This document shows positions 35,339 through 55,987 of a stretch of 64,000 nt of DNA, one piece after another. Within the stretch, counting starts at the first letter, position 1. Each line of letters opens with the position of its first letter. The stretch is from Flavobacterium sp. CG_23.5 (GTDB lineage: Bacteria; Bacteroidota; Bacteroidia; Flavobacteriales; Flavobacteriaceae): assembly GCF_017875765.1 (NCBI RefSeq), contig NZ_JAGGNA010000001.1, positions 1,247,501 through 1,311,500 on the forward strand. Reading direction: 5' to 3'. The translations under genes and the position numbers were made by a program. Below the pieces are notes generated by a model. That model was not told the DNA's origin and made no database searches. It saw only the letters and a list, made by a program, of their open reading frames with translations.

Positions 35339-35417
35339 AAGCGAAACAAAACTTCGCCAATCTACCCAGAATTGGGTGTATATACGAAGTTTTATTTCGC
35401 CTATATACTAGTTATCA
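35339..35417. repeat. Candidate attI-like or terminal site with a 16-bp hairpin
   Basis: The arms gcgaaacaaaacttcg (35341-35356) and cgaagttttatttcgc (35385-35400) pair over 16 positions with one mismatch, and an inner stem ACCC/GGGT lies in the loop. A GTTATCA core-like heptamer follows at 35411. It is 30 nt after the recombinase gene, at the boundary to the first cassette. It could be the primary recombination site, a diverged attC, or simply a terminator (no T-run follows). Confidence 0.4.
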
Positions 35418-35427
35418 GCAACCTAAG

Positions 35428-35802
35428 CTACACTTTGTGGTTAATAGCTTCTGCTTTAAAAATATGAATTAATTCGCCATCCCATAAACACATGGCTATT
35501 TTGTCATTAAAATACTTATCACATAATTTTTGTCTTTCATCCATCGTTTTAGGATACCAAAATTTTTCCATTAATTCAATTTCAGTCAACGGTCTATTCA
35601 TTGCGTATGTAAATTCTTCATCAGTTAAAATATAATCTTTTCCTTTACCGTGTTGCATTGGGTAGTCGTTTGAGTACCCAACTACAAATTTACCTTTCGT
35701 ATTTACATAGCAATTATAATTATCGCCTTGTGAGTATTTTTCAGCTTTGCACCACGAAATTAACTTATCTTTTATTTCTGGAGTTAAAATATTATTTTCC
35801 AT
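35428..35802 (-). CDS. Cassette 1: hypothetical protein (124 aa)
   Basis: The start is taken at the ATG at 35802 (MENNILTPEIKDKLISWCKAEKYSQGD). The frame stays open upstream, but that part is the attC-like site. The soluble protein has FVVGYSNDYPMQHGKGKDYILTDEEF and ends with AMCLWDGELIHIFKAE, and I do not recognise it. It is transcribed against the orientation of the attC sites and so must carry its own promoter inside the repeat or depend on read-through from the RNA ligase gene, which has the same direction. Confidence 0.6.
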   Translation of the reverse strand: MENNILTPEIKDKLISWCKAEKYSQGDNYNCYVNTKGKFVVGYSNDYPMQHGKGKDYILTDEEFTYAMNRPLTEIELMEKFWYPKTMDERQKLCDKYFNDKIAMCLWDGELIHIFKAEAINHKV

Positions 35803-35837
35803 TTTGTTTTGTTTTAAATTAGTAATTCGTGGTATGC

Positions 35838-35969
35838 TGATAACACTCGTTTGCACGCATTGCGGGTCTTGTGGTTCAATCATATTTTTATTTCGCATCA
35901 TATTTATTTAAGTTAGAAAATTTATCGTTACGAACTCCGCAACGTCGAGCAAGCGAGGGAACGTTAGGA
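35838..35969 (+). repeat. attC-like site 1
   Basis: 132 bp from TGATAAC to GTTAGGA. Inner arms CTCGTTTGC near the left core and GCAAGCGAG near the right core pair, as do TTGCGG and CCGCAA. The right core is preceded by GGGAAC. It is nearly identical to site 2 over its whole length. Confidence 0.75.
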
Positions 35970-35989
35970 GCAACCGCCAATTGGAGTGG

Positions 35990-36955
35990 TTAAAAATTAT
36001 TTAAAAACCAAAATCTTGCTTTATTTACAATAGCTCCTTTCACTTTCTTTTCATCTAATCCGCTTGTTTCTAAAGTATCTTTTTCCTCTTTTAAAATATC
36101 GGTTACAATCCATCTTAAAAACTCTCCAATAGATTTTGTTTCAATTGAGATTCCGTTTTCTTTTAGAACTTCCAATCCTTGTTTCAATCTGTTTTCGGTT
36201 ACTGACAATTCTACAAATTCATTAATACTTTCCATTGCTACAACATCAATTTCGTTTAATACTTTTACTTTTGATGCAGAATGTTTTTCGCCTTTTGATT
36301 TGAATTTTAAATCAGGGAAATCTACTGATGTAAAAACAATTCCTTCTCCAATTCCAATATTTCCAAAATGCTTTCCAACAGGGCATTCATTTTCAACATC
36401 GATAGTTAATTCAATCAATCTATTTTGAATTAATTCAGGACTATTAAAATCTATTTCAACCTCGGATGTTTTAAATTGGTTAATATTAAATATTTTGTTT
36501 TCCTCATCTTTGAATGCTTCAGGAATTTCAACCCATTCATCATCTACTTTTACACCGAAAATCACAAACATTTTTTCCAATCCATTAATAGCAACTCCTT
36601 TTTGAACATTTCCACCGCACCATTCTCCATAAATTGCACCAAATTCATTAAATGATAATTTGTTAAAAAACTTATCAAAATCAAGTAAGTGCATTTTATT
36701 CATAAATCCAGCATTGTCAGATTCTAATTCTAAAACTCTTTCTCTTGATTGAAATTCTATTTTACCATCAGGATATTTTACAATTCCTGCATTTGTTCCG
36801 TGAAGTTTTACAGTTCCTTTAAATTTTAATGTTGGGTAATTTGAATTATGAGAATAAACACTTTCTCCTTTTTCGTCTTTCCCTTGATAATCGTGATTTG
36901 TTTTTACAGTTCTAATCACATTTCTAAACTGCTCAATACTTGGGTATTTTTTCAT
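35990..36955 (-). CDS. Cassette 2: RNA ligase (Rnl2-type)
   Basis: The 321-residue protein has the nucleotidyltransferase motifs of phage-type RNA ligases: motif I KLHGTNAG with the adenylated Lys50, FQSRERV, GAIYGEWCGG (motif III region), GEGIVFTS (motif IV) and LKFKSKG (motif V). Such enzymes seal nicked RNA in ATP-dependent steps and can repair tRNAs cut by anticodon nucleases. It is cytoplasmic. The gene lies on the minus strand between two nearly identical attC-like sites, so it could move as one unit. Its operon partner, if any, is the 124-aa gene. Confidence 0.88.
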   Translation of the reverse strand: MKKYPSIEQFRNVIRTVKTNHDYQGKDEKGESVYSHNSNYPTLKFKGTVKLHGTNAGIVKYPDGKIEFQSRERVLELESDNAGFMNKMHLLDFDKFFNKLSFNEFGAIYGEWCGGNVQKGVAINGLEKMFVIFGVKVDDEWVEIPEAFKDEENKIFNINQFKTSEVEIDFNSPELIQNRLIELTIDVENECPVGKHFGNIGIGEGIVFTSVDFPDLKFKSKGEKHSASKVKVLNEIDVVAMESINEFVELSVTENRLKQGLEVLKENGISIETKSIGEFLRWIVTDILKEEKDTLETSGLDEKKVKGAIVNKARFWFLNNF

Positions 36956-37001
36956 CTTATTCTTGTTTTAATTTGTTAATTGATATTCGTTCGTGGTATG
37001 C

Positions 37002-37133
37002 TCCTAACACTCGTTTGCACGCATTGCGGGTCTTGTGGTTCAATCATACTTTTATTTCGCATCATATTTGTTTTAATTAGAAAGTTTATCGTTACGAACT
37101 CCGCAACGTCGAGCAAGCGAGGGAACGTTAGCA
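37002..37133 (+). repeat. attC-like site 2
   Basis: 132 bp from TCCTAAC to GTTAGCA, with the same stems and the GGGAAC block as site 1. Only a few bases differ between the two copies, which suggests recent duplication or exchange. Confidence 0.75.
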
Positions 37134-37316
37134 CTCACCCTAAAAGACCGACACGACCGACAACAAACGACCGAAAAAATGACAGGGAAATGCCAACGCT
37201 TCGTAAAATTAAAAGAGTTGCAAGCCGACCCACAACCCAACGCTTTTGCAGCACATTTAATTTTACCCATCCGCACCCAAAGCCCACCACCACCCTTAAA
37301 AATTTTCAACTAAAAC

Positions 37317-37361
37317 TTTGACATCAGAAACAAAATGACTAAATTTGCCAAAATTTGGCAA
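37317..37361 (+). promoter_or_regulatory. Promoter and overlapping palindromic operator of the RM cassette
   Basis: TTTG (37317-37320), 19 nt, TAAATTTG (37340-37347) form an ideal Bacteroidota promoter. The palindrome TTGCCAAAATTTGGCAA (37345-37361, 8-1-8) overlaps the end of the -7 box and the likely start point, and the ATG follows 10 nt later. The encoded XRE domain is the obvious candidate to bind it and repress its own gene. The stretch before it (37134-37316) is A/C-rich with no gene. Confidence 0.7.
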
Positions 37362-37371
37362 CTTAATTATT

Positions 37372-38601
37372 ATGCAAACAATCGGAACAACATTCAAAAA
37401 TATACGAGAAGAACGGAATCTTCTTTTAGAAGACTTAACCAAAAAAACAGGCATAAGTAAAGCGGTGTTAAGTCGTATTGAAAATGGTAAACGACTGCCG
37501 ACAAGAGAACAAGTAAACCAACTTTGTCAATATTATAAAGCTGAAAAAAATGAAATTATTGTTCAATGGCTTAGCGACAAACTTGTATACGAAGTTCAAG
37601 ACGAAGATTTCGCTTTGGAAGCAATGCAAGTTGCAGAAGAAAAAATAAAATACGGTACGAACGGGTATGCACATACAAATAATTATATTTTATCTCTAAA
37701 CGAACACAAACAAAAAAGAAATATTGACGACTTCGTAAACAAAGTTGTTCAAGGTGATTGTTTAGAAGTTATGCAATTAATTCCTGATAAATCAGTAAAT
37801 ATGATTCTATGCGATTTGCCATATGGCACAACGCAAAACAAATGGGATTCAGTAATAGACTTAAAGAAACTTTGGGTAGAATACGAAAGAATAATAAAAG
37901 ATGACGGAGCAATTGTTTTGACTTCACAGGGAATTTTTACAGCAAAGTTGATTTTGAGCAACGAGAAATTATTTAAATACAAAATCACTTGGATAAAATC
38001 TAAATCAACCAACTTTCTAAACGCTAAAAAACAACCACTTCGTAAACACGAAGATATTTGCGTTTTTTACAAAAAACAACCCACATACAATCCTCAGATG
38101 TCCGAAGGTGAGGCATACGATAAAGGTATTCGCAAAGACCAATATACAGGAAGTTACGGGGATTTTAAACCAAAACACGTAAAGAGCAATGGCGAACGCT
38201 ATCCAAATGACATAGTATTTTACGAAGAACAAAATATTGATGATTTTGTGTACATTAAAACAGCAGAATCAGAAGGAACTGTTTACCATCCAACCCAAAA
38301 GCCAATTGAATTAGGTCGTTACTTAATTAAAACTTTTACAAATCCAGGCGATATTGTTTTAGATAACGCTTGTGGAAGCGGTAGCTTGTTGCTTTCTGCA
38401 ATTTTAGAAAACAGAAAATTTATAGGTATTGAAAAAAATGAAGATGTATTATTGCATAAAGTAAAACCAACTGATTACATAAAAGTGTGTTCAGACAGAA
38501 TTAAAGAAATATTAAAAAGAAAAGAAGTTGAAGAGTCAACTTTAAGACTTTTCAAAGAACCAATTGCAAAATATCACACACTGAATTATGAAGTTAAATG
38601 A
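37372..38601 (+). CDS. Cassette 3: XRE-DNA methyltransferase fusion
   Basis: The 409-residue protein joins an N-terminal XRE helix-turn-helix (about 5-60, REERNLLLEDLTKKTGISKAVLSRIENGKRLP) to a DNA amino-methyltransferase of the beta order. The catalytic motif IV DLPYGT is at 148-153, and the AdoMet motif I LDNACGSGS is near 331. It should modify adenine-N6 or cytosine-N4 and, through the XRE part, act like a controller protein. I chose the ATG at 37372 because an upstream TTG lies inside the operator. It overlaps the next gene by 14 nt. The pair forms a restriction-modification system. Confidence 0.9.
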   Translation: MQTIGTTFKNIREERNLLLEDLTKKTGISKAVLSRIENGKRLPTREQVNQLCQYYKAEKNEIIVQWLSDKLVYEVQDEDFALEAMQVAEEKIKYGTNGYAHTNNYILSLNEHKQKRNIDDFVNKVVQGDCLEVMQLIPDKSVNMILCDLPYGTTQNKWDSVIDLKKLWVEYERIIKDDGAIVLTSQGIFTAKLILSNEKLFKYKITWIKSKSTNFLNAKKQPLRKHEDICVFYKKQPTYNPQMSEGEAYDKGIRKDQYTGSYGDFKPKHVKSNGERYPNDIVFYEEQNIDDFVYIKTAESEGTVYHPTQKPIELGRYLIKTFTNPGDIVLDNACGSGSLLLSAILENRKFIGIEKNEDVLLHKVKPTDYIKVCSDRIKEILKRKEVEESTLRLFKEPIAKYHTLNYEVK

Positions 38602-41482
38602 AAGAGCTTGGGCAGGGCAAATAATTAGTTGGATAAAACAATCCATCAATGACAGTACTACAATATTTCAAGACGCCACCAACGATGAAGGCTTGAAAGT
38701 TGCCTCAGGTAGAACAAAATTCCCTGATGTTCTTTTATTTACTGATAAAATTTCAGGTGTTGTTTTCAACGGTTGGGAATTAAAATTTCCTGATACGTCT
38801 GCGGACGATTCTGAAATGCTTGAGAACGCTTTGGAAAAAGCCGAGCGTTTAAAATCAAATTCTTTCGTTACTTGGAATGGTACTGAGGCAATCATTTGGA
38901 AAATCAATGACGATAATTATTCGCTTTCAGGTTTGGAGAAACTAAAAGTTTATCCAAAAGAAAAAGACATTGTAAAAAGAAATGATTTAGCCGATAGAAA
39001 CAACTACAACAAACACGAAGCTAAACTTCAAAAAAGGCTAAATGAAATTTTACACGATTTAGGACAATTATACGAGAATGGAGAACTTAAAAATGCGATA
39101 AACATTTCGTCAAATATTGTTGAAGCGGTAACACAAACTGCATTGCATTTTGTTCCACAACTAAAAAATGAAATCAACGAACTTAAAGGAGATGATAAAG
39201 CTTTCAGAACCGAATTTAATCAGTGGAAAATAATTGAAAGTGCTACACTTAAAATCCTTTCAACTTCATCAAGACGAGTTGAAAAAGTTGAACCCGAAGA
39301 AGTTTTAGCAAAGTTCACTTACTATAAATTGATTGGTAAAGTTTTGTTTTATTTGACTCTTTCCGAAAACTTGTCAGGCAAAGTTTCTAAATTAGAGTTA
39401 AAAAACAGCAAACAAGTTCAAAAACAACTAAATGAATTTTTCAATCAAGCAAAGAAAATAGATTATCAGGCTGTTTTTGAAAGCGATTTTACAGACAAAA
39501 TTCCATTCAATGAAACAATAGATGAGTTACTCTTTAGACTTGTTGGAGTTTTTAACGAATTTGATTTTAAAGTTTTACCAACCGAAGTAATCGGCTACAT
39601 ATTGGAAAACTTAGTTCCGCAAGAAGAAAAACAAAAATTCGGGCAATACTTTACTTCGGAAACTTTAGCAAATCTTGTTACATTTTCAGCAATTAAAAGC
39701 AGAAATGATGTTGTGATTGACCCGACATCAGGTACAGGAACTTTCTTAAATTCGTTTTACAACACATTGCAATTTTTTGGGAACAAAAGCCACCAACAAA
39801 TTTTAAATCAAATTTGGGGTAACGACATATCTCATTTTCCTGCAACACTTTCAGTTATTAGTTTATACAAACAGAAAGTTGATGATACAGCAAATTTTCC
39901 GAGAATAATCCGAAAAGATTTTTTCACGATTACGCCTAGTCAGACAATAGCAATTCCCGACAACAAAGACATTGATAAAATCAATCAAATTCCCATTCCG
40001 AAATTTGACGCTGTTATTTCAAATTTTCCTTTCATTCAACAAGAGGATATTCCGAATGAAATTTTGAATACGCAGTTTGAAAGCGAGTTTGCGAAAACCC
40101 AAACTGCCTTTATGAACGGTAATAAGTTTGACATAAACGGGAAAAGCGATTATTACATTTATTGCTTTTACAACTCATTTAAGTTTCTTAAAGACAATGG
40201 AACTCTATCAGCAATTACCTCAAACGCTTGGTTAGGCAAGAATTATGGGTTACAGTTCAAGAAATTCCTATTGGATAATTTTCACATCAGATACATTGTA
40301 AAAAGCAATGCGGAGCATTGGTTCAAAGATTCTAAAGTAAGTACTATTTTTATAACACTTGAAAAAGGGGCAAGCAAAGAGCCAACTAAATTTATTACAG
40401 TAAACGAGAAGTTGGAAAATCTTTTTAAAGAGAATTCATTACAACAGTTTGAAGATTTTTATACCGAAGTAGATAATTGCAACAATTCCAAAAACGCCAA
40501 TTGGCAAGAAGATGGCCAATTCAAAAACGTATTTCATAAAACAGATAAAACAATTATAGTTAGTATTGTTGAGCAATCACATTTGAAAAATTCTCTTGTT
40601 TCACAAGAAAATTGGGCAACTTATTTTGTTAGCCAAAATCCATTAGGTGTTTTTGAGAAAAAACTCATAAATCCTTTTCCAAGCATTTATGATACAGGCA
40701 GAGGAACACGAACAGGTTGGGACGAAATGCACATTATTTCCAATGAGGAAAACAAATCATTGAAAATAGAAAAAGACTTTTTGTTGCCGATTTTAAAAAC
40801 AAGTCAGGAACTTAAAACAGTTGCTTACAGCAACAAATCGGAATACAATCTTTTTGTATGCAACGAAGATGAAAAGACATTGAAAGCAAAGTATCCAAAT
40901 GCTTACAAACACATCAAAAAGTTTGAAACAACTACAAACAAGACAGGAATTGCATTGTCCGATGTTTTGAAAACAAGAAAACCGTTTTGGTATTCGCTTG
41001 CACCTGAACAATCGGCAAATATTTTCATTTCCCTAAATCCAAGCCAACGATTATTCTTTTCGTTCAGCAAATCGCCTTTGTATCTCAATCAAAGATTGGT
41101 TGCAATTCGTGTAAAGAAAAAAGACGTTGAAATTGTATCGGCATTGCTAAATTCAATCGTTTCTCTTTTGATTGTTGAATTAAATGGAGTTTCAAGAAAC
41201 TTGGGAGCATTGGACTTGAACGCTGACTTTTTCAAGACAAAAATGAAAATTTTCGACCCAAGTTTACTAACTGAAAAACAAATAGAAAACATCCTCGGAA
41301 AATTTGAAACGCTTAACAAACGACAAATACAGGATTACGAAAACGAATACAAACAAAAAGACAGGATAGCTTTCGATGAAGAAATATTAAAATCTTACGG
41401 CTTTAAGACAGACTCTCTTCCACAATTGTATTCTATTTTGACCGAGACAATTAAAAATCGTGTAGAAATGAAAAACAGATAA
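38588..41482 (+). CDS. Cassette 3: type IIG-like restriction-modification enzyme
   Basis: The 964-residue protein has an N-terminal PD-(D/E)XK-type nuclease site (Pro46-Asp47 in FPDVLLF, then Glu64-Leu-Lys66 in GWELKF). A helical connector follows, then an N6-adenine methyltransferase with motif I VIDPTSGTGTF (about 376-386) and motif IV SNFPF (478-482). A C-terminal target-recognition-like region has SLLIVELNGVSRNLGALDLN. This order is typical of single-chain type IIG enzymes. Together with the XRE methyltransferase it forms a complete defence cassette in front of attC-like site 3. The target sequence cannot be read from the protein. Confidence 0.85.
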   Translation: MKLNERAWAGQIISWIKQSINDSTTIFQDATNDEGLKVASGRTKFPDVLLFTDKISGVVFNGWELKFPDTSADDSEMLENALEKAERLKSNSFVTWNGTEAIIWKINDDNYSLSGLEKLKVYPKEKDIVKRNDLADRNNYNKHEAKLQKRLNEILHDLGQLYENGELKNAINISSNIVEAVTQTALHFVPQLKNEINELKGDDKAFRTEFNQWKIIESATLKILSTSSRRVEKVEPEEVLAKFTYYKLIGKVLFYLTLSENLSGKVSKLELKNSKQVQKQLNEFFNQAKKIDYQAVFESDFTDKIPFNETIDELLFRLVGVFNEFDFKVLPTEVIGYILENLVPQEEKQKFGQYFTSETLANLVTFSAIKSRNDVVIDPTSGTGTFLNSFYNTLQFFGNKSHQQILNQIWGNDISHFPATLSVISLYKQKVDDTANFPRIIRKDFFTITPSQTIAIPDNKDIDKINQIPIPKFDAVISNFPFIQQEDIPNEILNTQFESEFAKTQTAFMNGNKFDINGKSDYYIYCFYNSFKFLKDNGTLSAITSNAWLGKNYGLQFKKFLLDNFHIRYIVKSNAEHWFKDSKVSTIFITLEKGASKEPTKFITVNEKLENLFKENSLQQFEDFYTEVDNCNNSKNANWQEDGQFKNVFHKTDKTIIVSIVEQSHLKNSLVSQENWATYFVSQNPLGVFEKKLINPFPSIYDTGRGTRTGWDEMHIISNEENKSLKIEKDFLLPILKTSQELKTVAYSNKSEYNLFVCNEDEKTLKAKYPNAYKHIKKFETTTNKTGIALSDVLKTRKPFWYSLAPEQSANIFISLNPSQRLFFSFSKSPLYLNQRLVAIRVKKKDVEIVSALLNSIVSLLIVELNGVSRNLGALDLNADFFKTKMKIFDPSLLTEKQIENILGKFETLNKRQIQDYENEYKQKDRIAFDEEILKSYGFKTDSLPQLYSILTETIKNRVEMKNR

Positions 41483-41625
41483 GATAGCCAACGCATTTGG
41501 TGGCACATTTGTATTTTTTGCAACAGCACAGACCAACCCTAAAAAATCCAAAAGAGCCACCAAGCCAACGCACCAAGACAGACACAAACGACAACGAACA
41601 AACACGACAGAAAAGAAGGGCGAAG

Positions 41626-41757
41626 TGCTAACATCGGTTTTGCAAAATGGCGGGTTCAGTGCTTCTATGACAGTTTAGTGCAAGGTTCAAGTTCGGTTTT
41701 TCAATTGAACATTTGTGCTAAAAATCCGCCACTTCGCAAAGCCGAGAACCGTTAGCG
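41626..41757 (+). repeat. attC-like site 3
   Basis: 132 bp from TGCTAAC to GTTAGCG. Left arm ATCGGTTTTGC with GGCGG pairs with CCGCC and GCAAAGCCGAG on the right, and AGAACC precedes the right core. The 140 nt before it (41483-41625) are A/C-rich on the plus strand, without a gene. Confidence 0.8.
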
Positions 41758-41782
41758 GTCAGGCTAAAAGACGACACCACCA

Positions 41783-43406: not shown

Positions 43407-43467
43407 CAATATATTGTATAACTGCAAAATTGACACTTCTACCCTTCACTGACAAAGAAGCCCGAAC

Positions 43468-43592
43468 CGCTAACACACGTCTTGCGCAATTTGCTAATTT
43501 AGTGGAATTACCGTTTTTTATCGTATTTTCGTTTAGCCGAAAATACTCGTCTTCGTAAGTCGCAAACTGCGCAAGGCGCGAGAACGTTGGCG
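43468..43592 (+). repeat. attC-like site 4
   Basis: 125 bp from CGCTAAC to GTTGGCG. CTTGCGCA on the left pairs perfectly with TGCGCAAG on the right, and GAGAAC precedes the right core. The spacer contains agtggaattaccgtttt, shared with site 5. Confidence 0.8.
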
Positions 43593-44175: not shown

Positions 44176-44205
44176 TTTAACCTTTCATTCCATTAAAGTG
44201 GCGGA

Positions 44206-45081: not shown

Positions 45082-45198
45082 CGCCAACAGCTGTTTTGAT
45101 ATAGTGGGGTTTTAGTGGAATTACCGTTTCGCATCATAATTCTGCAAAGCAGAAAATTGAAAGGTTACGAATTCCCCACCATCTCAAAGCAGCGGGAC
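45082..45198 (+). repeat. attC-like site 5, interrupted by an IS at its right core
   Basis: Left core CGCCAAC and arm AGCTGTTTTGATATAGTGGGG pair with CCCCACCATCTCAAAGCAGC on the right. The GGGAC that should precede the right core is at 45194-45198 and directly joins the left end of the insertion element. The missing core GTTAGCA is at 46901-46907, beyond the element. Rejoined, the site is 124 bp. Confidence 0.75.
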
Positions 45199-46900
45199 GT
45201 CAAACTGTCTAATAACCTCTTTAGCTCTCGCTAACTTATTTGTATTAAAAATCTTTCAAAATATTTTGTAATACGATTGATTTTTTGTACATTTAAGTAT
45301 GAAATTCATCAACGGAACCAACAGAAACCAACTGCCACTTTTTGCCTCATCAATTGATGATGCCATTGCGCAAGACAATGAAATTAGGCTCATCGACCTT
45401 TTTGTGGATAGTTTAAAATTGAGTGATTTTGGTTTTGCTTTCGACTTTGTCGAAAACGGAAGACCTGCCTATCACCCGTCGGATTTACTCAAACTTTTTA
45501 TTTACGGTTATCTCAATCGCATGCGTTCGTCGCGAACTCTCGAAAAAGAATGTTCCCGCAACATCGAACTCATGTGGTTGCTAAAAGCACTTGTTCCAGA
45601 TCACAACACCATCGCCAATTTCAGAAAAGACAATCCCAAAGCCATTGCGCGTGTCTTTCGAGCAACGGTGAAGATGGCTTCCCATTTTGAACTGATTGGC
45701 GGAAGCCTTGTCGCGGGTGACAGTACTAAACTTAGAGCCCAAAACTCTAAGAAAAACAATTTCAATCCCAGTAAAATAGAACGGCATATTGCTTATATCG
45801 ATGCTAGATTAGAAGAATACAATCTGGCTTTAGCAAAAGCGGACGGCGATGAAACTGAAAAGAAAAAGATAGAAACAAAGGTTAGAAAACATACTATCCA
45901 AAAACAAAAATACATTCAATACAAGAATACAATTGAGACAACCGGTATTACCCAAATCTCTACTTCAGATCCCGATAGTCGCCAAATAATGACTCGAAAT
46001 AACATCTCTGAAGTAGCCTATACTGTACAAACAACAGTAGATGCTTTGCACAATATCCCAATTGATTTTAAGGTCACTAATGAAAATGATTCTAAAGCTA
46101 TGGGAGGCATGCTGCGCCGTAGTAAAGTCATTTTGGGACATAACAATTTTACCGCCATTTATGACAAAGGATACCACACCGGAAGCGAGTTTGAGTATGC
46201 TAATAAACTAGGCGTTGCTGTCTTGGTTGCCATTCCAGGGGTTGCCGCACATGCACCCGATACTGCTTTTGATGTAGAACATTTTAAATACAATAAAGAC
46301 ACTGATTCTTATACGTGTCCCGCTAATGAAATCCTAACCACTAATGGGAATTGGTATTCCAAAAAAAACGGGAAATCAATAACCCAAATGAAGCATTATA
46401 AAACTAGTGCCTGTTTGAATTGCGAACTCTTTAAGAAATGCACTAAAAATGTTAAAGGAAGACTCATAGAACGCTCCCAATATGCCGACTTAATTTACGA
46501 AAACAAAGTTCGAATCGAGAATAACTATGAAATCTATCGCAGGCGACAAGCCATTGTGGAGCATCCCTACGGAGTTATTAAACGGCAATGGGATTTTTAT
46601 TTCATGACCAAGAAAACCATAAAACACGCCTCTGCCGATGTGGGATTGATTTTTACAGCCTATAATCTCAGGAGAATTTTCAACTTGATTGATCCAAATG
46701 AGTTAAAGCAGTATCTAAAAGTATTGACCGTGTTTTTCAACTCTATTAAAGCCTATTTAAAGGCCTTTTGCCACTTGAAATTATTGACGAATCATTGTCA
46801 GCCTCTTTTTAAAGAGACTTTCTTTTGTACGACAAATCAACTATATTTACAAACTCACAACGCAGTTTGAGAAACTTTGAAGGTTTTTAGACGAACTGAC
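45199..46900 (+). mobile_element. IS1182-type insertion sequence in an attC-like site
   Basis: The element is 1702 bp. Its ends are inverted repeats of about 19 bp: GTCAAACTGTCTAATAACC on the left (45199) and the complement of GGTTTTTAGACGAACTGAC on the right (46882-46900), with five or six mismatches. The only gene is the transposase. No target duplication longer than about 3 nt can be seen. The insertion point is exactly before the GTTAGC core. Two decayed copies of the right part lie at 53738 and 54804, next to the same type of core. Confidence 0.85.
45299..46870 (+). CDS. IS1182-family transposase
   Basis: The 523-residue DDE transposase has the family start FINGTNRNQLPLFASSIDD, HPSDLLKLFIYGYLNRMRSS, LVPDHNTIANFRKDN, the first acidic residue in LVAGDSTKLRAQNS, the second in AIYDKGYHTGSE, and the Glu region VEHPYGVIKRQWDF. 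It also has the Cys-rich CLNCELFKKCT block. Length and motifs are complete, so it may be active. It catalyses movement of the 1.7-kb element. Confidence 0.9.
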   Translation: MKFINGTNRNQLPLFASSIDDAIAQDNEIRLIDLFVDSLKLSDFGFAFDFVENGRPAYHPSDLLKLFIYGYLNRMRSSRTLEKECSRNIELMWLLKALVPDHNTIANFRKDNPKAIARVFRATVKMASHFELIGGSLVAGDSTKLRAQNSKKNNFNPSKIERHIAYIDARLEEYNLALAKADGDETEKKKIETKVRKHTIQKQKYIQYKNTIETTGITQISTSDPDSRQIMTRNNISEVAYTVQTTVDALHNIPIDFKVTNENDSKAMGGMLRRSKVILGHNNFTAIYDKGYHTGSEFEYANKLGVAVLVAIPGVAAHAPDTAFDVEHFKYNKDTDSYTCPANEILTTNGNWYSKKNGKSITQMKHYKTSACLNCELFKKCTKNVKGRLIERSQYADLIYENKVRIENNYEIYRRRQAIVEHPYGVIKRQWDFYFMTKKTIKHASADVGLIFTAYNLRRIFNLIDPNELKQYLKVLTVFFNSIKAYLKAFCHLKLLTNHCQPLFKETFFCTTNQLYLQTHNAV

Positions 46901-46917
46901 GTTAGCAAACATTATAG

Positions 46918-47898
46918 ATGAAAAACACGATTACAATATTACTCTCATTATTTTTTTTGAATATAGTTGCTCAAAATAAAGTTGAATGCGACAAATTATT
47001 ATCAAAAGAAATTGATATCGAAATAAATGACTTAGAAAAATTTCAAAGTGATTTTTCTAATTTTAAAAATTGTGGATTAGATTCTGTTGACTTAGAGATT
47101 TTCTCAAACAATTCAATTTTAGCTACAATACTCATCACACTTACATCCGAAAATAAAAATGAAAAAATAACTTACGGAACTTTATTGAGTAAACTTTTGG
47201 ATTTTAAAAAAAGTGAGCAATATCCAAAAATTAGAGAAGTAACATTGATTTCAAAAGAACTTTCAACTAAGATTGCTAGAATCGAAAATTGGAATGAGGA
47301 CAAAATAAAACTTAAAAAACTCGAAATTTCTGAAAGTTATTTAGTTAAAATGCATGATTTTGTAAAAGAAAATTCAGAGTCAAAAACGTATAAAGAAATT
47401 TTCATGGTTCTTAATGAAGAACAAAATAAAAATAAAGTTACTACTTTAAAAAAATCAGAGGATTATTCAGATATTTTTACAAATTATGGAAACGCGGATT
47501 TAGCGGATTTATTAAAAAAAGCTAATACTTTAAATAAACCACTAATAATCTATTTTACAGGTTATGGTTGCATAAATTCAAGGAAGATTGAAAAAAACAT
47601 ATTATCTGAAGATGTGATTTACGAAAAACTTAAAAATCAGTTTTATTTTGTGAGTCTTTATCTAGATGATAAAACCCAATTAGCAAATTCTGAAAAATTT
47701 ACATCAACATCTACCGGAATATTAATTACAACTATTGGGCAGAAACATTCAAATTTACAAATCGAAAAATTTAGTGTGAATATGCAACCATATTTTGCTA
47801 TCCTTGATTCAAACGGGCATATTATTGCAACAGAAAGCTATTTGACTGATAAAGATAACTTTATGAAATTTATAAATAAGGGATTGAACACAAAATAA
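46918..47898 (+). CDS. Cassette 6: secreted thioredoxin-fold protein with CxxS site
   Basis: The 326-residue protein begins 10 nt after the core of interrupted site 5. It has a signal peptide (ITILLSLFFLNIVAQN). The C-terminal domain (about 190-326) is thioredoxin-like: KPLIIYFTGYGCINSRKIEK, then YFVSLYLDDKTQL and QPYFAILDSNG. It resembles the last domain of DsbD-like proteins, but the second Cys of CxxC is Ser. This variant may isomerise or bind mixed disulfides without being a full reductase. The N-terminal 170 residues are of unknown type. Confidence 0.7.
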   Translation: MKNTITILLSLFFLNIVAQNKVECDKLLSKEIDIEINDLEKFQSDFSNFKNCGLDSVDLEIFSNNSILATILITLTSENKNEKITYGTLLSKLLDFKKSEQYPKIREVTLISKELSTKIARIENWNEDKIKLKKLEISESYLVKMHDFVKENSESKTYKEIFMVLNEEQNKNKVTTLKKSEDYSDIFTNYGNADLADLLKKANTLNKPLIIYFTGYGCINSRKIEKNILSEDVIYEKLKNQFYFVSLYLDDKTQLANSEKFTSTSTGILITTIGQKHSNLQIEKFSVNMQPYFAILDSNGHIIATESYLTDKDNFMKFINKGLNTK

Positions 47899-47902
47899 CG
47901 TT

Positions 47903-48035
47903 TGCGAACACTTGCTACAAGAGATTTGGGCATTTGGTTTAATTTAAAAATGGTCTTGTATTTGGGAAGTTTAGGCAAATCCGAAAATAAGGCTTAATTT
48001 AATCCCAAACCTCTTGTAGCAAGGGAACGTTATAT
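47903..48035 (+). repeat. attC-like site 6
   Basis: 133 bp from TGCGAAC to GTTATAT. CTTGCTACAAGAG on the left pairs perfectly over 13 bp with CTCTTGTAGCAAG on the right, and TTTGGG with CCCAAA. GGGAAC precedes the right core. This is the clearest example in the window. It begins 5 nt after the stop of the preceding gene. Confidence 0.85.
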
Positions 48036-48071
48036 GCCATTGCATAGCCAACGACAACTAATAAAGTAAGT

Positions 48072-48503: not shown

Positions 48504-48628
48504 CAGCGGTTACAAGAAATGGCAAGAAAAGTGGTAAATTCACGTTTATTTTCCGCAAGAAAAACTATCCTAATGGCAAATATGCGGCTACGAAGTTCAA
48601 CACTAGTGCAAGCCACGAGAAGTTGGTG
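48498..48628 (+). repeat. attC-like site 7 (degenerate)
   Basis: 131 bp from ATATAAC to GTTGGTG. The spacing and the spacer motif (agtggtaaattcacgttt) fit the family, but the arms pair poorly, so it may be a hybrid of two sites or decayed. Confidence 0.5.
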
Positions 48629-48698
48629 GATATACGCCCACAGAAATCGGAAAAACGTAATATTTTCAGAATTAGAATATTTTGATTAAATTAGCTGA

Positions 48699-49229
48699 AT
48701 GGATAAAGAAGCTGAAACAGGACTAGATTTTGTAATTGATAAGTTAACAAACTCAATAGAAAACGTGATTACTGGAGACAGTTTTCAGACTGAAATTTCT
48801 ATTCTTCAAAACTCTGATTTAAAATCTGTAACAAAGAAAAATGGCTGGCTTTTTAATTGGAATGAAGAATTTAAAAATCCTGTAAGAGATATTTATAAAC
48901 TAACTATTTCGGGTAATTCGAAAATCATTCAAGGATTGGTCAGTCTAGAAGTTAAATCTGACCACGTTTATATGCATCTTGTTGAAAATGCACCATTCAA
49001 CAAAGGACAAACAAAAGTTTATGCTGGCGTAGCTGGCAATTTAGTAGCTTATGCTTGTAAATTATCTTTTCAACGTGGACACGATGGAAATGTTTCTTTC
49101 CTTTCAAAATCACAATTAGTTGAACATTATGAAAAAACACTTGGAGCTTTTCATTTTGGCGGCAGAGTTATGATAATTGAAACAAAATCAGCTTTGAAAT
49201 TAATCAATAAATATTTTCAAAATAAATAG
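48699..49229 (+). CDS. Cassette 8: GNAT-like protein
   Basis: The 176-residue protein shows the pattern of an N-acetyltransferase fold: strand ISGNSKIIQGLVSLEVKSDHVYMHLVENAP, then GVAGNLVAYACKLSFQRGHDGNVSFLSKSQLVEHYEKTLGAFHFGGRVMII. The usual Q/RxxGxG/A acetyl-CoA loop is only weakly kept (AGVAGNLVAYA). It is followed after 2 nt by a 49-aa frame, so the two probably form a unit. A toxin-antitoxin role (GNAT toxin) is possible but not shown. Confidence 0.6.
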   Translation: MDKEAETGLDFVIDKLTNSIENVITGDSFQTEISILQNSDLKSVTKKNGWLFNWNEEFKNPVRDIYKLTISGNSKIIQGLVSLEVKSDHVYMHLVENAPFNKGQTKVYAGVAGNLVAYACKLSFQRGHDGNVSFLSKSQLVEHYEKTLGAFHFGGRVMIIETKSALKLINKYFQNK

Positions 49230-49393: not shown

Positions 49394-49440
49394 CACCAAC
49401 AGCTAAAGCTTCGTTGGGCTTGAAAAGCCAACAATGAAGC
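49394..49440 (+). repeat. Left half of an attC-like site
   Basis: CACCAAC followed by AGCTAAAGCTTCGTTGG matches the left core plus A-start of the array sites and lies 12 nt after the last cassette 8 gene. The right half is missing. The sequence passes directly into the truncated recombinase pseudogene, so the array was broken here. Confidence 0.4.
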
Positions 49441-50138
49441 CACGCTGGGAATAGCGACTATCGAAATCACCGCCTGCTCTACCTTGAGGTTGTCCGTTAA
49501 ATAGATACACTTTGGGTTTCTCGGCTTCAATATAAGTTTAGAGTCCTCTAATTAAATGTTTGGATAGCGGAACATAGCGGTCTTTTTTACCTTTGCCTTG
49601 CACCACTTTGAGTTGCTCGCGATCAAAATCCAAGTCTTGCAAACGCACACTTCGGGCTTCCATGCAACGTAATCCACAGCCATACAAAAGTCCAATAAGC
49701 ATTCTATGTTTCAGGAGTTGGCAACTAGTAAGCAACCGCCAAACTTCTTCTTTACTGAGAATCGTAGGGATTTTTTGATCGTGCTTTATCGGGGGTAAAT
49801 GTAGGTATTCATAAGGCAAGCCCTCTGATTTAAGCAAGAATCAAAGACCATAAACACAATGTTTAAAGTACGTTTGCGAAGGCGTTTTTGAGCGTTTTTG
49901 AAGCATAAACCAGTATTCTTGCACTTGCTCAATTTCTAACTCCGTTGGGATTTTTCCGAAATGCAATGCCATAGCCGCAAAATGCTGACCGTAGTTTCTA
50001 CAGGTATTTTCACTTCTGCCTAAAACGGAAGTAGTTCGTTTAAAACCATGAAATAAATCATCAAAATCAGGAACTTCTGAAACGGCTCGCCTGATGATAG
50101 CAGTTGGTACAACTACTTCATCTTCTTTTTTTTGTCAT
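49441..50138 (-). pseudogene. Decayed tyrosine recombinase
   Basis: On the minus strand the N-terminal part reads VPTAIIRRAVSEVPDFDDLF and LGRSENTCRNYGQHFAAMAL. After an in-frame TGA near 49840 come KIPTILSKEEVWRLLTSC, GLLYGCGLRCMEARSVRL (catalytic Arg) and GKGKKDRYVPLSKHLI. A TAA at 49538 follows, then EKPKVYLFNGQPQGRAGGDF, and the gene breaks off before HxxR. There is also a frameshift next to the start codon. This is not a copy of the 34266 recombinase. It may have brought in the kinase gene next to it. Confidence 0.8.
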
Positions 50139-50252
50139 CTTAATTGGTTTTATATATATATTTACACAGGAGTAACATTTTCAGGAAAAACACTACCGAA
50201 GGTTTAGTTTATAGAACTGCTTAGAAAAAGAATAAACTATTAAAAAAATAAA

Positions 50253-53737: not shown

Positions 53738-54079
53738 ATTCACTCTGGTCCTCGTTTTCAAGGAGTACCTAATTTCTTTAAAAAGAAAATCAAATCAGGT
53801 TCAATGCGGTTCAATTACCCTTTGACGATGTGGGACTCATTTTTACTTACTACAATTCCAAGAGAATCTTCAACTTGATTGATCCAAATGAGTTAAAACT
53901 TATTGATAGTGTTTTTAAACTGTATTGAAGCACTATTAAGGGCATTTTGCCACTTAAAATTATTCACGAATCATTGTCAGCCTCTTTTTAAAGAGACTTT
54001 CTTTTGTACGACATATCAACTATATTTACAAATTCCCAATGCAGTTTGAGAAACTTTGAAGGTTTTTAGACGAACTGAC
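53738..54079 (+). mobile_element. Decayed right end of the IS1182-type element, copy 2
   Basis: From 53821 the sequence follows the 3' end of the full element (GATGTGGGACTCATTTTTAC...), with deletions and stops, to the right inverted repeat GGTTTTTAGACGAACTGAC at 54061-54079. The next bases are the attC core GTTAGCG (54080). The 83 nt before 53821 are not in the full IS but are shared with copy 3. Confidence 0.8.
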
Positions 54080-54161: not shown

Positions 54162-54392
54162 ATGAAAACAGTATCGCTTAAAATAGATGATTCAATATTC
54201 GGAGAAACTGAAAAAATTCTTTCTAGAATCAGTATTTCTAGAAATAGATATATCAACGAAGCAATTGAATATTATAATAAAGTACAGAAAAGACAAATTT
54301 TAGAAAAACAACTTAAAGCCGAATCCGAGTTAGTCAAAAAAGAGTCAATGAACATTTTAAAAGAATTTGAAAGAATTGACTATGCAGATTAA
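54162..54392 (+). CDS. RHH-type antitoxin
   Basis: The 76-residue protein begins with a ribbon-helix-helix pattern (MKTVSLKIDDSIFGETEKIL, then ISRNRYINEAIEYYNKVQKR) and ends in a charged helix that would wrap the toxin. It is the first gene of the cassette and overlaps the toxin gene by 11 nt. It should neutralise the toxin and, by its RHH part, bind the operator upstream. Confidence 0.85.
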   Translation: MKTVSLKIDDSIFGETEKILSRISISRNRYINEAIEYYNKVQKRQILEKQLKAESELVKKESMNILKEFERIDYAD

Positions 54393-54729
54393 TCAATATG
54401 AAATTTGGATTGCTGACTTGAATCCACAAATAGGAACTGAAGCAGGTAAATCTAGACAAGTCCTTATAGTTCAAACAAACTTACTAAATAAAATATCACA
54501 CCCATCAACAATCGTTTGTCCAATAACTACAAATGTTCAAGATGATTCTGAAATTTTAAGAGTTCATCTTAAGAAAGGAATAGCAAATTTACACGATAAT
54601 TGCGACATAATGATTGACCAAATTCGAGCAATCGACAACAAAAGATTGATTAAAAAGGTTGGAAAATTACCAACTGATTTGATAGAAAAAATAAAAGAAA
54701 ATATTGCGATTATTATTGATATAGAATAA
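54382..54729 (+). CDS. MazF/PemK-like toxin
   Basis: The 115-residue protein starts at the ATG inside the antitoxin end (MQINQYEIWIADLNPQIGTEAGKSRQVLIVQ). The family blocks are present: GTEAGKSRQVLIVQT, STIVCPITTNV, and NCDIMIDQIRAIDNKRLIKKVGKL. The Arg and Thr/Ser residues of the MazF catalytic pocket are kept. Such toxins cut mRNA or tRNA at short motifs and stabilise integron arrays. An upstream TTG would add five residues but is less likely. Confidence 0.9.
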   Translation: MQINQYEIWIADLNPQIGTEAGKSRQVLIVQTNLLNKISHPSTIVCPITTNVQDDSEILRVHLKKGIANLHDNCDIMIDQIRAIDNKRLIKKVGKLPTDLIEKIKENIAIIIDIE

Positions 54730-54737
54730 GCACGATC

Positions 54738-54803
54738 GCACAACAGCCGTTTCCCAAGATTGGAGATTTTGTGCTAAATTCACATTCACGTTTCGCAAGA
54801 AAT
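54738..54803 (+). repeat. Left half of attC-like site 8
   Basis: GCACAAC and arm AGCCGTTTCCCAAGATTGG, then the shared spacer with tttcgcaaga. It begins 9 nt after the toxin stop. The right half is replaced by the decayed IS copy. The core-like TTTAGCC (55146) follows that copy. A stretch at 55951-55980 is largely complementary to this left arm. Confidence 0.6.
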
Positions 54804-55145
54804 ATTCACTCTTGTGCTCGTTTTCAACGAGTACCTACTTTCTTTAAAAACGAAACCGAAGCATCTATAATCCGGTTCAATTACCCTCTGCCGATGTTGG
54901 ACTCATTTTTACTGCCAACGATCTCAAGAGAATCTTCAACTTGATTGATCCAAATGAGTTAAAACTTATTGATAGTGTTTTTAAACTGTATTGAAGCACT
55001 ATTAAGGGCATTTTGCCACTTGAAATTATTCACGAATTATTATCAGCCTCTTTTTACAGAGACTTTCTTTTGTACGACAAATCAACTATATTTACCAATT
55101 CACAACACAGTTTGAGAAACTTAAAAGGTTTTTAGAGGAACTGAC
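54804..55145 (+). mobile_element. Decayed right end of the IS1182-type element, copy 3
   Basis: Same 342-nt length and same left junction as copy 2. The IS-derived part starts at TGCCGATGTTGGACTC and ends with GGTTTTTAGAGGAACTGAC (55127-55145). The next bases TTTAGCC look like a mutated attC core. Copies 2 and 3 share deletions not in the full element, so one arose from the other or from a common decayed parent. Confidence 0.8.
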
Positions 55146-55160
55146 TTTAGCCTACAAATT

Positions 55161-55855
55161 ATGAAAAAACTGCTAAAAACAATATTGTTACTAACATTTT
55201 TAATTCTTTTTATGAACTGTGAAAAGAAAATTGATGAAGTAGAATTTGAAAAAAATGTATGACTGAAATTTTTCCGAAAATAGTTGACTCCATTTGTCTT
55301 GATAGTAGGAAAATGAACCCACCACCGACATTTGGAATAGAAACTTGGAATAAAGGAGAAATTATAAAAGTTGACACTTCAAAAGTTACAAGTAAAGAAA
55401 GAATTAAATATCAGAAGTGGAAAGCAGAACAAAAAAGAGTTGATAATGATACATCTAAAATAATTATTGGTTTCGACCAATATTTATTAAATTATGGACA
55501 AGGAAGATTAGCTGGTGAATCAAAATTATTAAATTCAAATTACAGTAATTTTAAATTTGACTTTTCAAAAATTAAATTAAATAGAAAATTTAAAATAAAA
55601 GATATATCTGAATTTCCAAAAGCAGAAATTCTATTAAAACATCATAGAGTTTTATTATATGAACAAAAATATAATTTTGTATTTTCTGGTTTACTTGAAA
55701 TTTCAAGAATAAAATTCGACAAGAATAAAAAAAATGGAGTTTTAGAAGGTAGTTTTAGTTATTATGGAAGATGCGGAAGAGGTTACCGAATATATATAAT
55801 GGAAATTAACGGAAAGTGGATAATCGAAAAAATGGAAGATACTTGGATATCGTAA
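55161..55855 (+). pseudogene. Cassette 9: lipoprotein gene split by a frameshift
   Basis: The first frame gives a lipoprotein signal (MKKLLKTILLLTFLILFMNC) and EKKIDEVEFEKNV before a stop at 55260. The second frame continues from position 55259 with MTEIFPKIVDSICLDSRKMN to the stop at 55855 (198 residues). The change lies at a run of seven A. Rejoined, the product is a lipoprotein of about 230 residues with KIIIGFDQYLLNYGQGRLAGES and SGLLEISRIKFDKN, of unknown function. Either a real mutation or a homopolymer sequencing error. Confidence 0.65.
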
Positions 55856-55864
55856 AAATACCTA

Positions 55865-55987
55865 GGCTAACAGCCATTTTGAGCTAGCTGGAATTCAGTG
55901 AAATTCCCGTTTTTATTTACATTCTGGTTTCGGCAATAATATTCTGTAGTAAAATCTCCAATTTGATGAAGCAGGGGAAACTTATTT
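55865..55987 (+). repeat. attC-like site 9, last of the array (degenerate)
   Basis: GGCTAAC plus AGCCATTTTGAGC on the left, the family spacer (agtgaaattcccgtttt) in the middle and GCAGGGGAAA-CTTATTT on the right, 123 bp. The right core starts with C instead of G, and the arms do not match well, so the site is probably inactive. It ends 141 nt before dps. Confidence 0.55.

What the first reader, a model, noticed from the sequence alone, without database searches (positions are those of the whole stretch)
35339..55987. Integron-like cassette array with its own type of attC site
At least eight intergenic palindromes of 123-133 bp share one architecture and orientation: nAAC core, one or two bases, left arm, variable spacer, right arm, GRGAAC, GTTRnnn core. 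Each lies directly after a gene stop, and the next gene starts soon after the right core. Classical attC sites have near-equal spacers between core and arm on both sides. Here the spacing is about 1 against 5-6 nt, so this may be a separate class. The cargo (RM, nuclease, RNA ligase, TA, unknown proteins) looks like that of a sedentary integron.
Basis: partly seen in the sequence, partly recalled or inferred. Interest (0 to 1): 0.92.

Follow-up and report, generated by a model that had tools for sequence, protein, structure and literature searches.

The report
A second kind of gene-collecting integron
Many Flavobacterium-like bacteria carry a gene-collecting platform that works like an integron but has a different integrase and a different kind of folded docking site; standard integron criteria would pass over it, and it could explain how genes move between these bacteria.

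Summary
The palindromes are real sites of an integron-like cassette array. Next come a TAnnTTTG promoter-like motif, a covarying stem-loop (putative attI) and the first GTT core. A covariance model finds seven attC-like sites at 35.8-48.6 kb, plus one decayed copy at 55.9 kb. Each cassette's start is complementary to its own end (100 of 120 against 8.2 in shuffles; 105 of 124 in a second, overlapping set), the signature of units that circularise. A 1.43-kb cassette shared by Kaistella and a genome of the window's genus agrees from C|GTT to the next GTT, with unrelated flanks. The window's nuclease cassette sits at another rank in another genome. The integrase lacks the IntI-specific insertion, carries an N-terminal GARW domain and branches beside IntI, not inside it. 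Against true IntI arrays of the same phylum, unequal spacers are not special. What differs is an outer stem running 12 nt past the core with an A mispaired at position 8. Model hits occur in 94 of 150 relatives and 135 of 197 genomes of a second family. An IS1182-type element inserts at C|GTT. Recombination was not tested.

The parts
34266..35309 (+). integrase: tyrosine recombinase, 347 aa, N-terminal GARW domain (residues about 1-60), core-binding SAM-like domain and catalytic domain
   Evidence: PF00589 1.5e-38, PF13495 7e-16; NF040815 213.7 bits and TIGR02249 202 bits, both below cut-off; tree
35321..35328 (+). TATATTTG, promoter-like -7 element of the Bacteroidota type (type recalled), putative cassette promoter
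   Evidence: exact TAnnTTTG within 60 nt after the integrase match in 28 of 42 loci, shuffle rate 2.1%
35341..35413 (+). putative attI: stem-loop 35341-35400, TATATACTA, core GTT 35411-35413
   Evidence: 22 aligned loci: AGTT invariant, 8 of 9 predicted pairs with changes on both sides
35411..35962 (+). cassette 1 (unknown gene 35428-35901 on minus strand) ending in attC1
35838..35969 (+). attC1 (AAC 35842, GTT 35963-35965)
   Evidence: R1 94.4 bits
35963..37126 (+). cassette 2 (RNA-ligase-like gene 35990-36955 on minus strand)
   Evidence: PF09414 7.2e-11; cassette ends TCCT/TCCT match
37002..37133 (+). attC2
   Evidence: R1 94.0 bits
37127..41750 (+). cassette 3: HTH-DNA methyltransferase 37345-38601 and type IIG restriction-modification protein 38588-41482
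   Evidence: ends TGCT/TGCT match
41626..41757 (+). attC3
   Evidence: R1 95.3 bits
41751..43585 (+). cassette 4: PLD-fold nuclease-like protein 41783-43210
   Evidence: ends CGCT/CGCT match; body of the cassette 94% identical in genome G708 beside another attC
43468..43592 (+). attC4
   Evidence: R1 101.5 bits
43586..45198 (+). cassette 5: two genes of unknown function, 43642-44175 and 44206-45069
45082..45205 (+). attC5, interrupted at its C|GTT point (45198|45199) by the insertion sequence
   Evidence: R1 81.6 bits, junctions
45199..46900 (+). IS1182-family element (transposase 45299-46870) inserted at C|GTT of attC5, no target duplication
   Evidence: NF033551 309.5 bits; junctions
46901..48028 (+). 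cassette 6: thioredoxin-like protein 46918-47898
47903..48035 (+). attC6
   Evidence: R1 102.0 bits
48029..48628 (+). cassette 7 (gene 48072-48503, unknown) with degenerate attC7 48498-48628
   Evidence: R1 34.2 bits, E 3.2e-5
53807..54079 (+). remnant of the same IS, its right end directly followed by GTTAGC (core of a lost attC); PemK-type toxin-antitoxin genes 54162-54729 follow
   Evidence: PF02452 7.1e-27; start of remnant estimated from its 273-bp alignment
54873..55145 (+). second IS remnant, right end followed by a decayed core TTTAGC
   Evidence: start estimated from its 273-bp alignment
55865..55987 (+). attC8, decayed
   Evidence: R1 18.3 bits, E 0.08

Best explanation
This is a chromosomal gene-cassette platform that works like an integron and is run by its own integrase lineage. 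Gene cassettes of about 0.4-6 kb, usually one forward gene ending in an attC palindrome, are excised as circles and inserted by the tyrosine recombinase encoded at 34266-35309. Strand exchange falls at the C|GTT core. Incoming cassettes join at attI, just after the integrase stop, and the first cassettes are transcribed from a TAnnTTTG promoter between the integrase and attI. In a circle the site folds into a hairpin: an outer stem (GTT/AAC plus 7 pairs, a mispaired A, 4 more pairs), a 1-nt/5-nt asymmetric loop, an inner stem of about 18-20 pairs and a loop of about 75 nt. Shown by sequence here: the integrase-attI-array layout, cassette-end complementarity, conserved hairpin pairing, C|GTT cassette boundaries in two transferred cassettes, and the missing IntI insertion. 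Inferred: that this integrase is the enzyme, that a folded single strand is its substrate, that the mispaired A marks the strand, that the GARW domain helps recognise the hairpin, and that the promoter drives the array.
For: Integrase directly upstream. In 80 named GTDB loci carrying the integrase, R1 gives 213 hits at E<=0.01: 211 on the integrase strand, all of those downstream of it. The scanner gives 172 sites downstream on + against 7 upstream on + and 3 on the minus strand, and 44 of 51 loci with >=1.5 kb of room have a site. Cassette start and end are complementary over 4 nt in 100 of 120 (mean 8.2, maximum 16 in 1000 shuffles) against 8 of 146 for the two cores of one attC, and in 105 of 124 against 11 of 172 in the 80 loci, which share some contigs with the first set. 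40 aligned attC: 18 of 18 predicted inner pairs show changes on both sides (sites were picked for complementarity, so biased). attI: 8 of 9 pairs, not picked for pairing. Transfer: 1434-bp cassette 95% identical between Kaistella treverensis and G011, identity limits at C|GTT and flanks unrelated; window cassette 4 at 94% at another rank in G708. 196 distinct cassettes: longest ORF forward in 172, reverse in 11; start 44 nt after GTT, stop 17 nt before the end of AAC (medians). Sites away from the integrase keep to gene boundaries.
Against: No recombination was observed. One genome per species is held, so gain and loss within a species were not seen. 33 of 44 genus genomes without the integrase match still have at least one site, and the own genome has 13 sites at E<=5.1e-7 away from the array against 7 in it. 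In the own genome's other clusters few cassettes can be tested: the scanner gives 1 match of 2, and by eye the pair at 1505532/1506441 matches too. 39 of 244 cassettes cut from the arrays do not have matching cores, among them the window's span 43586-48028, which the IS interrupts. Seven of 51 integrase loci with room show no site by the scanner. Two plain single-strand folds of window sites were no better than shuffles (z -0.25 and -1.12), against three that were (z -4.0, -2.2, -4.1). The attI stem-loop could be an RNA leader instead of a recombination site.
Confidence: 0.9

Rival explanations
1. An ordinary sedentary chromosomal integron: a diverged IntI with ordinary attC sites.
For: Same GTTR/YAAC core, same circular-cassette logic and similarly unequal spacers as true IntI arrays of the phylum; TIGR02249 hits the integrase at 202 bits; R1 sees some IntI-array stretches weakly (17-29 bits, best E 0.0018); window family and IntI lie on one side of a 99/95 branch against Xer/XerA.
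Against: The distance from the KGxKxR motif to HxLRH is 64-65 residues in 100 of 105 family members, 106 in 27 of 32 IntI (the other five gave no value) and 72 in 12 of 13 Xer, so the IntI-specific insertion is absent. IntI forms its own clade (100/99) outside the window family (99/97). R1 gives no hit under E 0.24 in 32 IntI loci. Outer stem: position 8 paired in 0-1% here against 73% in IntI arrays, positions 9-12 81-91% against 35-43%.
Confidence: 0.07
2. The palindromes are transcription terminators or intergenic repeats (REP- or MITE-like) that settle after genes; no cassette recombination.
For: They follow gene stops closely and are palindromic; clusters and single sites occur elsewhere in the genome, also after gene stops.
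Against: A terminator or MITE does not make the 12 nt after one copy complementary to the 12 nt before the NEXT copy, does not sit on one strand downstream of one integrase family in 211 of 213 hits, and does not move with the gene between it and the previous copy with limits at C|GTT.
Confidence: 0.02
3. The array was built by transposition: the IS1182 element or another transposon carries or duplicates the units, and the tyrosine recombinase is an unrelated neighbour.
For: An IS1182 element and its remnants sit at the cores.
Against: The IS sits inside attC and splits it, without target duplication where both ends were seen: 10 of 11 right ends followed by GTTR, 6 of 7 left ends preceded by an attC arm. 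It was found in only a few of the fetched loci (21 alignments in all); the integrase, not the IS, is the constant neighbour.
Confidence: 0.01

Closest known systems
Integrons with IntI and attC (classes 1-3 and sedentary chromosomal integrons such as that of Vibrio cholerae)
   Same: Tyrosine recombinase next to an insertion site, tandem cassettes in one direction, GTTR/YAAC cores, cassette ends complementary in the circle, unequal spacers in the IntI arrays looked at here, promoter before the first cassette, clusters of sites without integrase elsewhere.
   Different: Integrase without the IntI-specific insertion and with an N-terminal GARW domain; integrase in the same direction as the array with attI after its stop; attI a covarying stem-loop; outer stem of attC longer, with an A mispaired at position 8; the attC model built here sees IntI-array sites at best weakly.
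Archaeal integrons (Ghaly et al. 2022, PMC9668308; passages seen)
   Same: attI reported immediately downstream of the integrase gene; cassette arrays.
   Different: Archaeal IntI are reported to have the IntI-specific domain and attC of the known fold; this family lacks the domain.
XerA / XerC / XerD recombinases
   Same: The best solved relative by sequence is XerA 5hxy; no IntI-specific insertion.
   Different: Xer/XerA rows fall on the other side of a 99/95 branch; they resolve chromosome dimers and have no cassette arrays (recalled).
attC-like 3' end of aph(3')-IVb in Riemerella anatipestifer (PMC13148043; passages and section 11 read)
   Same: Integration without homology of a unit of 27 nt + gene + 140 nt whose 3' end folds like attC; adding our medians, cassettes here have 44 nt before the gene and about 140 nt after it; the organism belongs to the relatives in which our sites abound (family placement recalled).
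   Different: [quoted passage not shown] I did not have that sequence or a named Riemerella genome, so the link is untested.
IS1111-attC elements (IS110/IS1111 family; recalled, search listing)
   Same: Insertion sequences that home on attC sites (recalled).
   Different: Here the element is of the IS1182 family and homes on C|GTT of this attC type.

Membership tests
integron (IntI type) | tyrosine recombinase gene beside the array | tested here: met
   34266-35309, PF00589 1.5e-38; sites downstream in 44 of 51 loci with room
integron (IntI type) | IntI-specific insertion (patch III region) | tested here: not met
   KGxKxR-HxLRH distance 64-65 in 100 of 105 against 106 in 27 of 32 IntI; TIGR02249 match broken into two stretches, 202 bits under cut-off 265
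integron (IntI type) | integrase inside the IntI clade | tested here: not met
   IntI 100/99 apart; window family 99/97; together against Xer/XerA at 99/95 (bootstrap not fully settled; the branch joining the window family with the divergent and long forms is only 86/74)
integron (IntI type) | attI next to the integrase | tested here: inconclusive
   conserved covarying stem-loop plus AGTT core after the stop in 22 loci; no recombination assay
integron (IntI type) | palindromic attC at the end of each cassette, all in one orientation | tested here: met
integron (IntI type) | complementary cassette ends (circular form) | tested here: met
   100 of 120, shuffles 8.2; 105 of 124
integron (IntI type) | cassettes found in other arrays with breakpoints at the core | tested here: met
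   Kaistella / G011 cassette; G708; few cases: of 11 shared pairs, 8 are the same contigs fetched twice
integron (IntI type) | cassette promoter | tested here: inconclusive
   TAnnTTTG in 28 of 42 loci; no expression data
integron (IntI type) | integrase-dependent attI x attC recombination | not testable with these tools
   needs an experiment
classical attC sites | outer stem limited to the core box, continuous pairing | tested here: not met
   position 8 mispaired, positions 9-12 paired against IntI arrays
classical attC sites | recognised by the default IntegronFinder / HattCI model | not tested
   programs not available here
NCBIfam NF040815 (XerA / 'integron integrase') | score over the curated cut-off of 220 | tested here: inconclusive
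   window 213.7, L067 203.1, L070 194.1, catalytic part of a long form 194.6 (below); L190 233.9 (above)

The most novel reading that the evidence does not exclude
Bacteroidota have a second integron superfamily: either an independent invention of cassette capture from a XerA-like recombinase, or a branch that split off before IntI gained its insertion. In it, an N-terminal GARW domain (single, or apparently triple in the roughly 580-residue forms) replaces the IntI insertion in reading folded single-stranded sites, and the mispaired A of the outer stem marks the strand. It is one of the main gene-exchange systems of Flavobacteriales and is the missing agent behind the homology-independent uptake of resistance genes seen in Riemerella.
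Probability: 0.5. Interest if true: 0.95.

Novelty: new variant of a known kind. Interest (0 to 1): 0.9.

Why it matters
IntegronFinder recognises an integrase by the IntI-specific domain (PMC9668308 passages), which this family lacks. IntegronFinder 2.0 reported In0 only, and later one complete integron (Salinibacter ruber), in Bacteroidetes apart from Chlorobi and Ignavibacteriae (PMC9024848 passages). Yet the model built here finds sites in 94 of 150 relatives and 135 of 197 genomes of a second family, 27 of 33 genera. A large reservoir of mobile genes would thus be uncounted. The cargo seen includes restriction-modification, a toxin-antitoxin, a mercury-type transporter cassette shared between two families (named by eye), and plasmid-borne copies in Chryseobacterium. 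It also makes an open question testable: whether folded-DNA cassette capture arose once or twice, and what part of the integrase reads the fold. And it offers a candidate agent for homology-independent acquisition of genes in Riemerella, reported in 2026 without a mechanism.

Tried and rejected
Rejected: that unequal spacers define the class (IntI arrays of the phylum mostly show 2/6 in the sites found, twice 1/5); that the sites are Rfam RNAs (only Flavo-1 and DUF805 RNA were found in 33-58 kb, both outside the array); that plain folding energy proves the hairpins (2 of 5 window sites no better than shuffles); that promoter motifs in attC loops are general (29 of 143 loops against 8.8 by chance, but 18 of the 29 come from two loci); that sites outside the array lie at random. 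The N-terminal domain looks to me like HARP / DUF5710-type GARWD domains (recalled); Pfam gave only weak hits, DUF5710 the best at E 0.045 for the window, and the PDB profile search nothing better than 0.035, so this stays a lead. attC pieces against plasmids found nothing beyond the Chryseobacterium plasmid already known. Literature: ten searches in open PMC only, no preprints; none listed a paper that I recognised as describing this system, which does not prove that none exists. The script stopped with a division by zero after finding 4 sites; it was replaced.

Full report
WHAT IS THERE. The window is G000:C1:1247501-1311500 of a 3.67-Mb single-contig genome. After its stop come TATATTTG (35321-35328), a stem-loop (35341-35400) and TATATACTA-GTT (core 35411-35413). 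Then follow cassettes that end in palindromes of 123-133 bp. A covariance model R1, built from 40 sites of the window and 19 loci, gives seven sites in the window at E<=3.2e-5 and an eighth decayed one (E 0.08) with filters off; four of the seven were in the training set. A mechanical scan finds 5 sites in 35301-49000 against 0.125 on average in 40 dinucleotide shuffles. Cargo: an unknown gene and an RNA-ligase-like gene on the minus strand, an HTH-methyltransferase with a type IIG restriction protein (PADLOC 436.7 bits), a PLD nuclease-like protein, a thioredoxin-like protein, unknowns and, in the decayed tail, a PemK toxin-antitoxin pair.

CASSETTES. If these are integron cassettes, the few bases after one core and the few bases before the next AAC belong to one circle and should be complementary, while the two cores of one site belong to two different cassettes. 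In the window and 40 regions fetched by the integrase (146 sites downstream of it on its strand, 2 sites on the other strand; not every region has sites), the 4-nt ends of the same cassette match in 100 of 120, against a shuffle mean of 8.2 and a maximum of 16 in 1000 shuffles; the two cores of one site match in 8 of 146. In 80 named GTDB loci, some of them the same contigs as in the first set, the figures are 105 of 124 and 11 of 172. Among the 100 cassettes chosen for matching at positions 1-4, the pairing goes on at 5-6 (95-97%) and 7 (70%), breaks at position 8 (1%: an A after the core in all 100, C or G opposite in 96), resumes at 9-12 (81-91%; 35-47% when ends of different cassettes are paired) and is near random from 13 on. 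The second set gives 0.00 at position 8 and 82-90% at 9-12. Of 196 distinct cassettes with matching cores (cassettes over about 6 kb were not counted) the median length is 790 bp; the longest ORF is forward in 172, reverse in 11, and no ORF of 60 aa exists in 13; the start lies 44 nt after GTT and the stop 17 nt before the end of AAC (medians).

SITES FOLLOW THE INTEGRASE. In the 80 loci R1 gives 213 hits at E<=0.01: 211 on the integrase strand, all downstream of it, and two weak ones on the other strand. The scanner gives 172 downstream on +, 7 upstream on +, 1 downstream and 2 upstream on the minus strand, in 370 kb downstream and 709 kb upstream; 44 of 51 loci with at least 1.5 kb of room have a site. 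Three with integrase have none, and 33 without integrase have at least one. Thirteen genomes that I picked for having sites but no such match carry Xer-like proteins of 30-34% identity, apart from one 37% relative and one 78-aa remnant at 76%. In two of these genomes cassette ends match in 7 of 8 neighbouring pairs (L109-L111). The own genome has 13 sites at E<=5.1e-7 outside the array, against 7 in it. They keep to gene boundaries: 0 of 13 lie inside an ORF of 100 aa or more (random 65%), 9 of 13 have a forward stop within 60 nt before AAC (random 6%), and two are split by the same IS. Few of their cassettes can be tested: the scanner gives 1 match of 2, and the pair at 1505532/1506441 matches by eye. 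The continuation of one array of G045 gives 17 of 18 (L108).

TRANSFER. Of 205 cassettes with matching cores (39 of 244 had none), 11 pairs matched over at least 60% of the shorter cassette: eight are the same contig fetched twice, one is a duplicate inside one array, and two are comparisons between genomes. One of these, 94.7% identical over 1435 bp, is shared by Kaistella treverensis (L163) and a genome of the window's genus (L072) whose integrase is only 40% identical to the window's. Identity begins at C|GTTAG and ends at the next GTTAG, and the flanks are unrelated; it carries a regulator and a MerT/MerP-like protein (names by eye). The second is 72% identical over part of the unit. The window's own cassette 4 occurs at 94% in genome G708, third after an integrase end and attI instead of fourth, beside a different attC, with identity setting in at C|GTTAGCGG apart from what the attC arms share.

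attI. A core was recognised in 25 of 42 loci; I aligned 22 of these, leaving out three divergent ones. AGTT is invariant, and 8 of 9 predicted pairs show changes on both sides (one pair is kept in 22 of 22 with four pair types). Exact TAnnTTTG lies within 60 nt of the integrase end in 28 of 42 loci against 2.1% in shuffles. The base before GTT is A in the 22 attI and C in the 40 attC, so the exchange lies at or after that base. Whether the stem-loop acts as DNA in recombination or as an RNA leader is open.

INTEGRASE FAMILY. NCBIfam gives XerA NF040815 213.7 bits (cut-off 220) and integron integrase TIGR02249 202 bits in two pieces (cut-off 265); IntI1 as a control gives 506. The distance between the KGxKxR and HxLRH motifs is 64-65 in 100 of 105 family members (some from the same contigs), 106 in 27 of 32 IntI and 72 in 12 of 13 Xer; the rest gave no value, apart from one family member at 43. 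In a tree of 58 rows, IntI (100/99) and the window family (99/97) are separate, and both lie opposite Xer/XerA on a 99/95 branch; the bootstrap had not settled, and the branch that joins the window family with its divergent and long relatives is only 86/74. So the window family is beside IntI, not in it; one origin or two cannot be told. Members have an N-terminal domain with R15, I16, W38, S39, W45 and H46 invariant in 21 aligned sequences; Pfam and PDB give no clear relative. Five forms of about 500-590 residues were seen (L103-L107); two whose sequence was printed seem by eye to have three such domains, and these two lead arrays of 12 and 16 sites of the same kind.

COMPARISON WITH IntI ARRAYS. 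True IntI are over cut-off in 105 of 395 genomes sampled from the phylum; of the genomes with a match only one is of the window's class. Of twelve stretches taken beside IntI genes, two gave no site; spacers in the rest are mostly 2/6, with 4-5/6-8 in one array and 1/5 in two sites, so unequal spacing is no distinction. A looser scan of the ten, keeping spacers 1-5 and 5-8, gave 82 sites; of 64 neighbouring pairs 49 have matching 4-nt ends, so they too are cassettes; but in those 49 position 8 is paired in 73% and positions 9-12 in 35-43%. R1 finds nothing under E 0.24 in 32 IntI loci. In the 12 IntI stretches it gives 7 weak hits of 17-29 bits, the best at E 0.0018, some of them at the IntI-array sites, against 36-113 bits for six sites of the Chryseobacterium plasmid searched in the same call.

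AN IS THAT HOMES ON THE SITES. The IS1182-family element at 45199-46900 splits attC5 at C|GTT without target duplication. In all loci fetched by then, 10 of 11 distinct right ends are followed by GTTR (one decayed) and 6 of 7 left ends are preceded by an attC arm. Three full copies and four remnants lie in the own genome's fetched stretches. One full copy sits in the other cluster of four sites.

RANGE. Integrase relatives: 183 GTDB stretches; the best 80, which I saw, come from Flavobacterium, Chryseobacterium, Kaistella, Pedobacter, Daejeonella, Saprospiraceae and other Bacteroidota, with one labelled Ignavibacteria. 103 of 395 order genomes match at E<=1e-60; such thresholds also admit 38-47% relatives, for some of which no array was seen beside the gene (L069, L075, L076 none, L073 one weak site). 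Sites: 94 of 150 relatives, 13 of 35 genera; 135 of 197 genomes of a second family, 27 of 33 genera. Plasmids: two Chryseobacterium records carry close relatives; one has six sites.

PRINT. IntegronFinder 2.0 (passages) found In0 only and then one complete integron in Bacteroidetes proper; the archaeal-integron paper (passages) states that IntegronFinder uses the IntI-specific domain; reviews list Bacteroidota among phyla with integrons (passages). [quoted passage not shown] the present arrays speak against the second half of that. PMC13148043 (passages and section 11) reports homology-independent integration in Riemerella anatipestifer of 27 nt + gene + 140 nt with an attC-like fold and no established mechanism; the size fits this system, but neither its sequence nor a named Riemerella genome was at hand. 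Ten searches of open PMC listed no paper that I recognised as describing this system.

VERDICT. Integron-like by the sequence tests that could be run; not a member of the IntI integrons by two tested features; a new variant of a known kind, possibly a second origin.

Noticed in passing
window 45199-46900; L095, L096, L097, L119, L231, L233, L234, L235, L238: An IS1182-family insertion sequence inserts at C|GTT of this attC type without target duplication, in several genomes; one search for IS1182 with attC listed three papers, none on this by title or abstract start.
   Followed up: yes
window about 49430-50140, minus strand: Remains of a second tyrosine recombinase, broken by a stop (PF00589 match 49490-49759), between the array and a hybrid histidine kinase.
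   Followed up: no
L079:17150-17324 and further places in L079; starts of similar sequence after the integrase in L049 and L061: A repeated element of about 170 bp with terminal palindromes follows the GTT core in the Chryseobacterium plasmid and lies at the attI place in other genomes; it may be an ORF-less cassette or another core-homing element.
   Followed up: partly
L103, L105 (also L104, L106, L107): Integrases of about 500-590 aa; the two printed seem to have three tandem GARW-type domains and lead arrays of 12 and 16 sites.
   Followed up: partly
L072 and L053: TAnnTTTG promoter-like motifs in the attC loops (14 of 16 and 4 of 4 loops), top strand only; these attC might carry promoters for the next cassette.
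   Followed up: no
L163:12621-14055 and L072 11115-12550 (L072 read on the integrase strand): The same cassette, with an ArsR-type regulator and a MerT/MerP-like protein (named by eye), in genomes of two families.
   Followed up: yes
window 34071-34181 (-) and 56864-56935 (+): Rfam Flavo-1 RNA just before the integrase and DUF805 RNA just after the array.
   Followed up: no
draft genomes, e.g. L040, L044, L054, L142: Contigs often end within 0.1-4 kb after the integrase, as expected if repeated sites break assemblies; arrays in draft genomes are probably undercounted.
   Followed up: no
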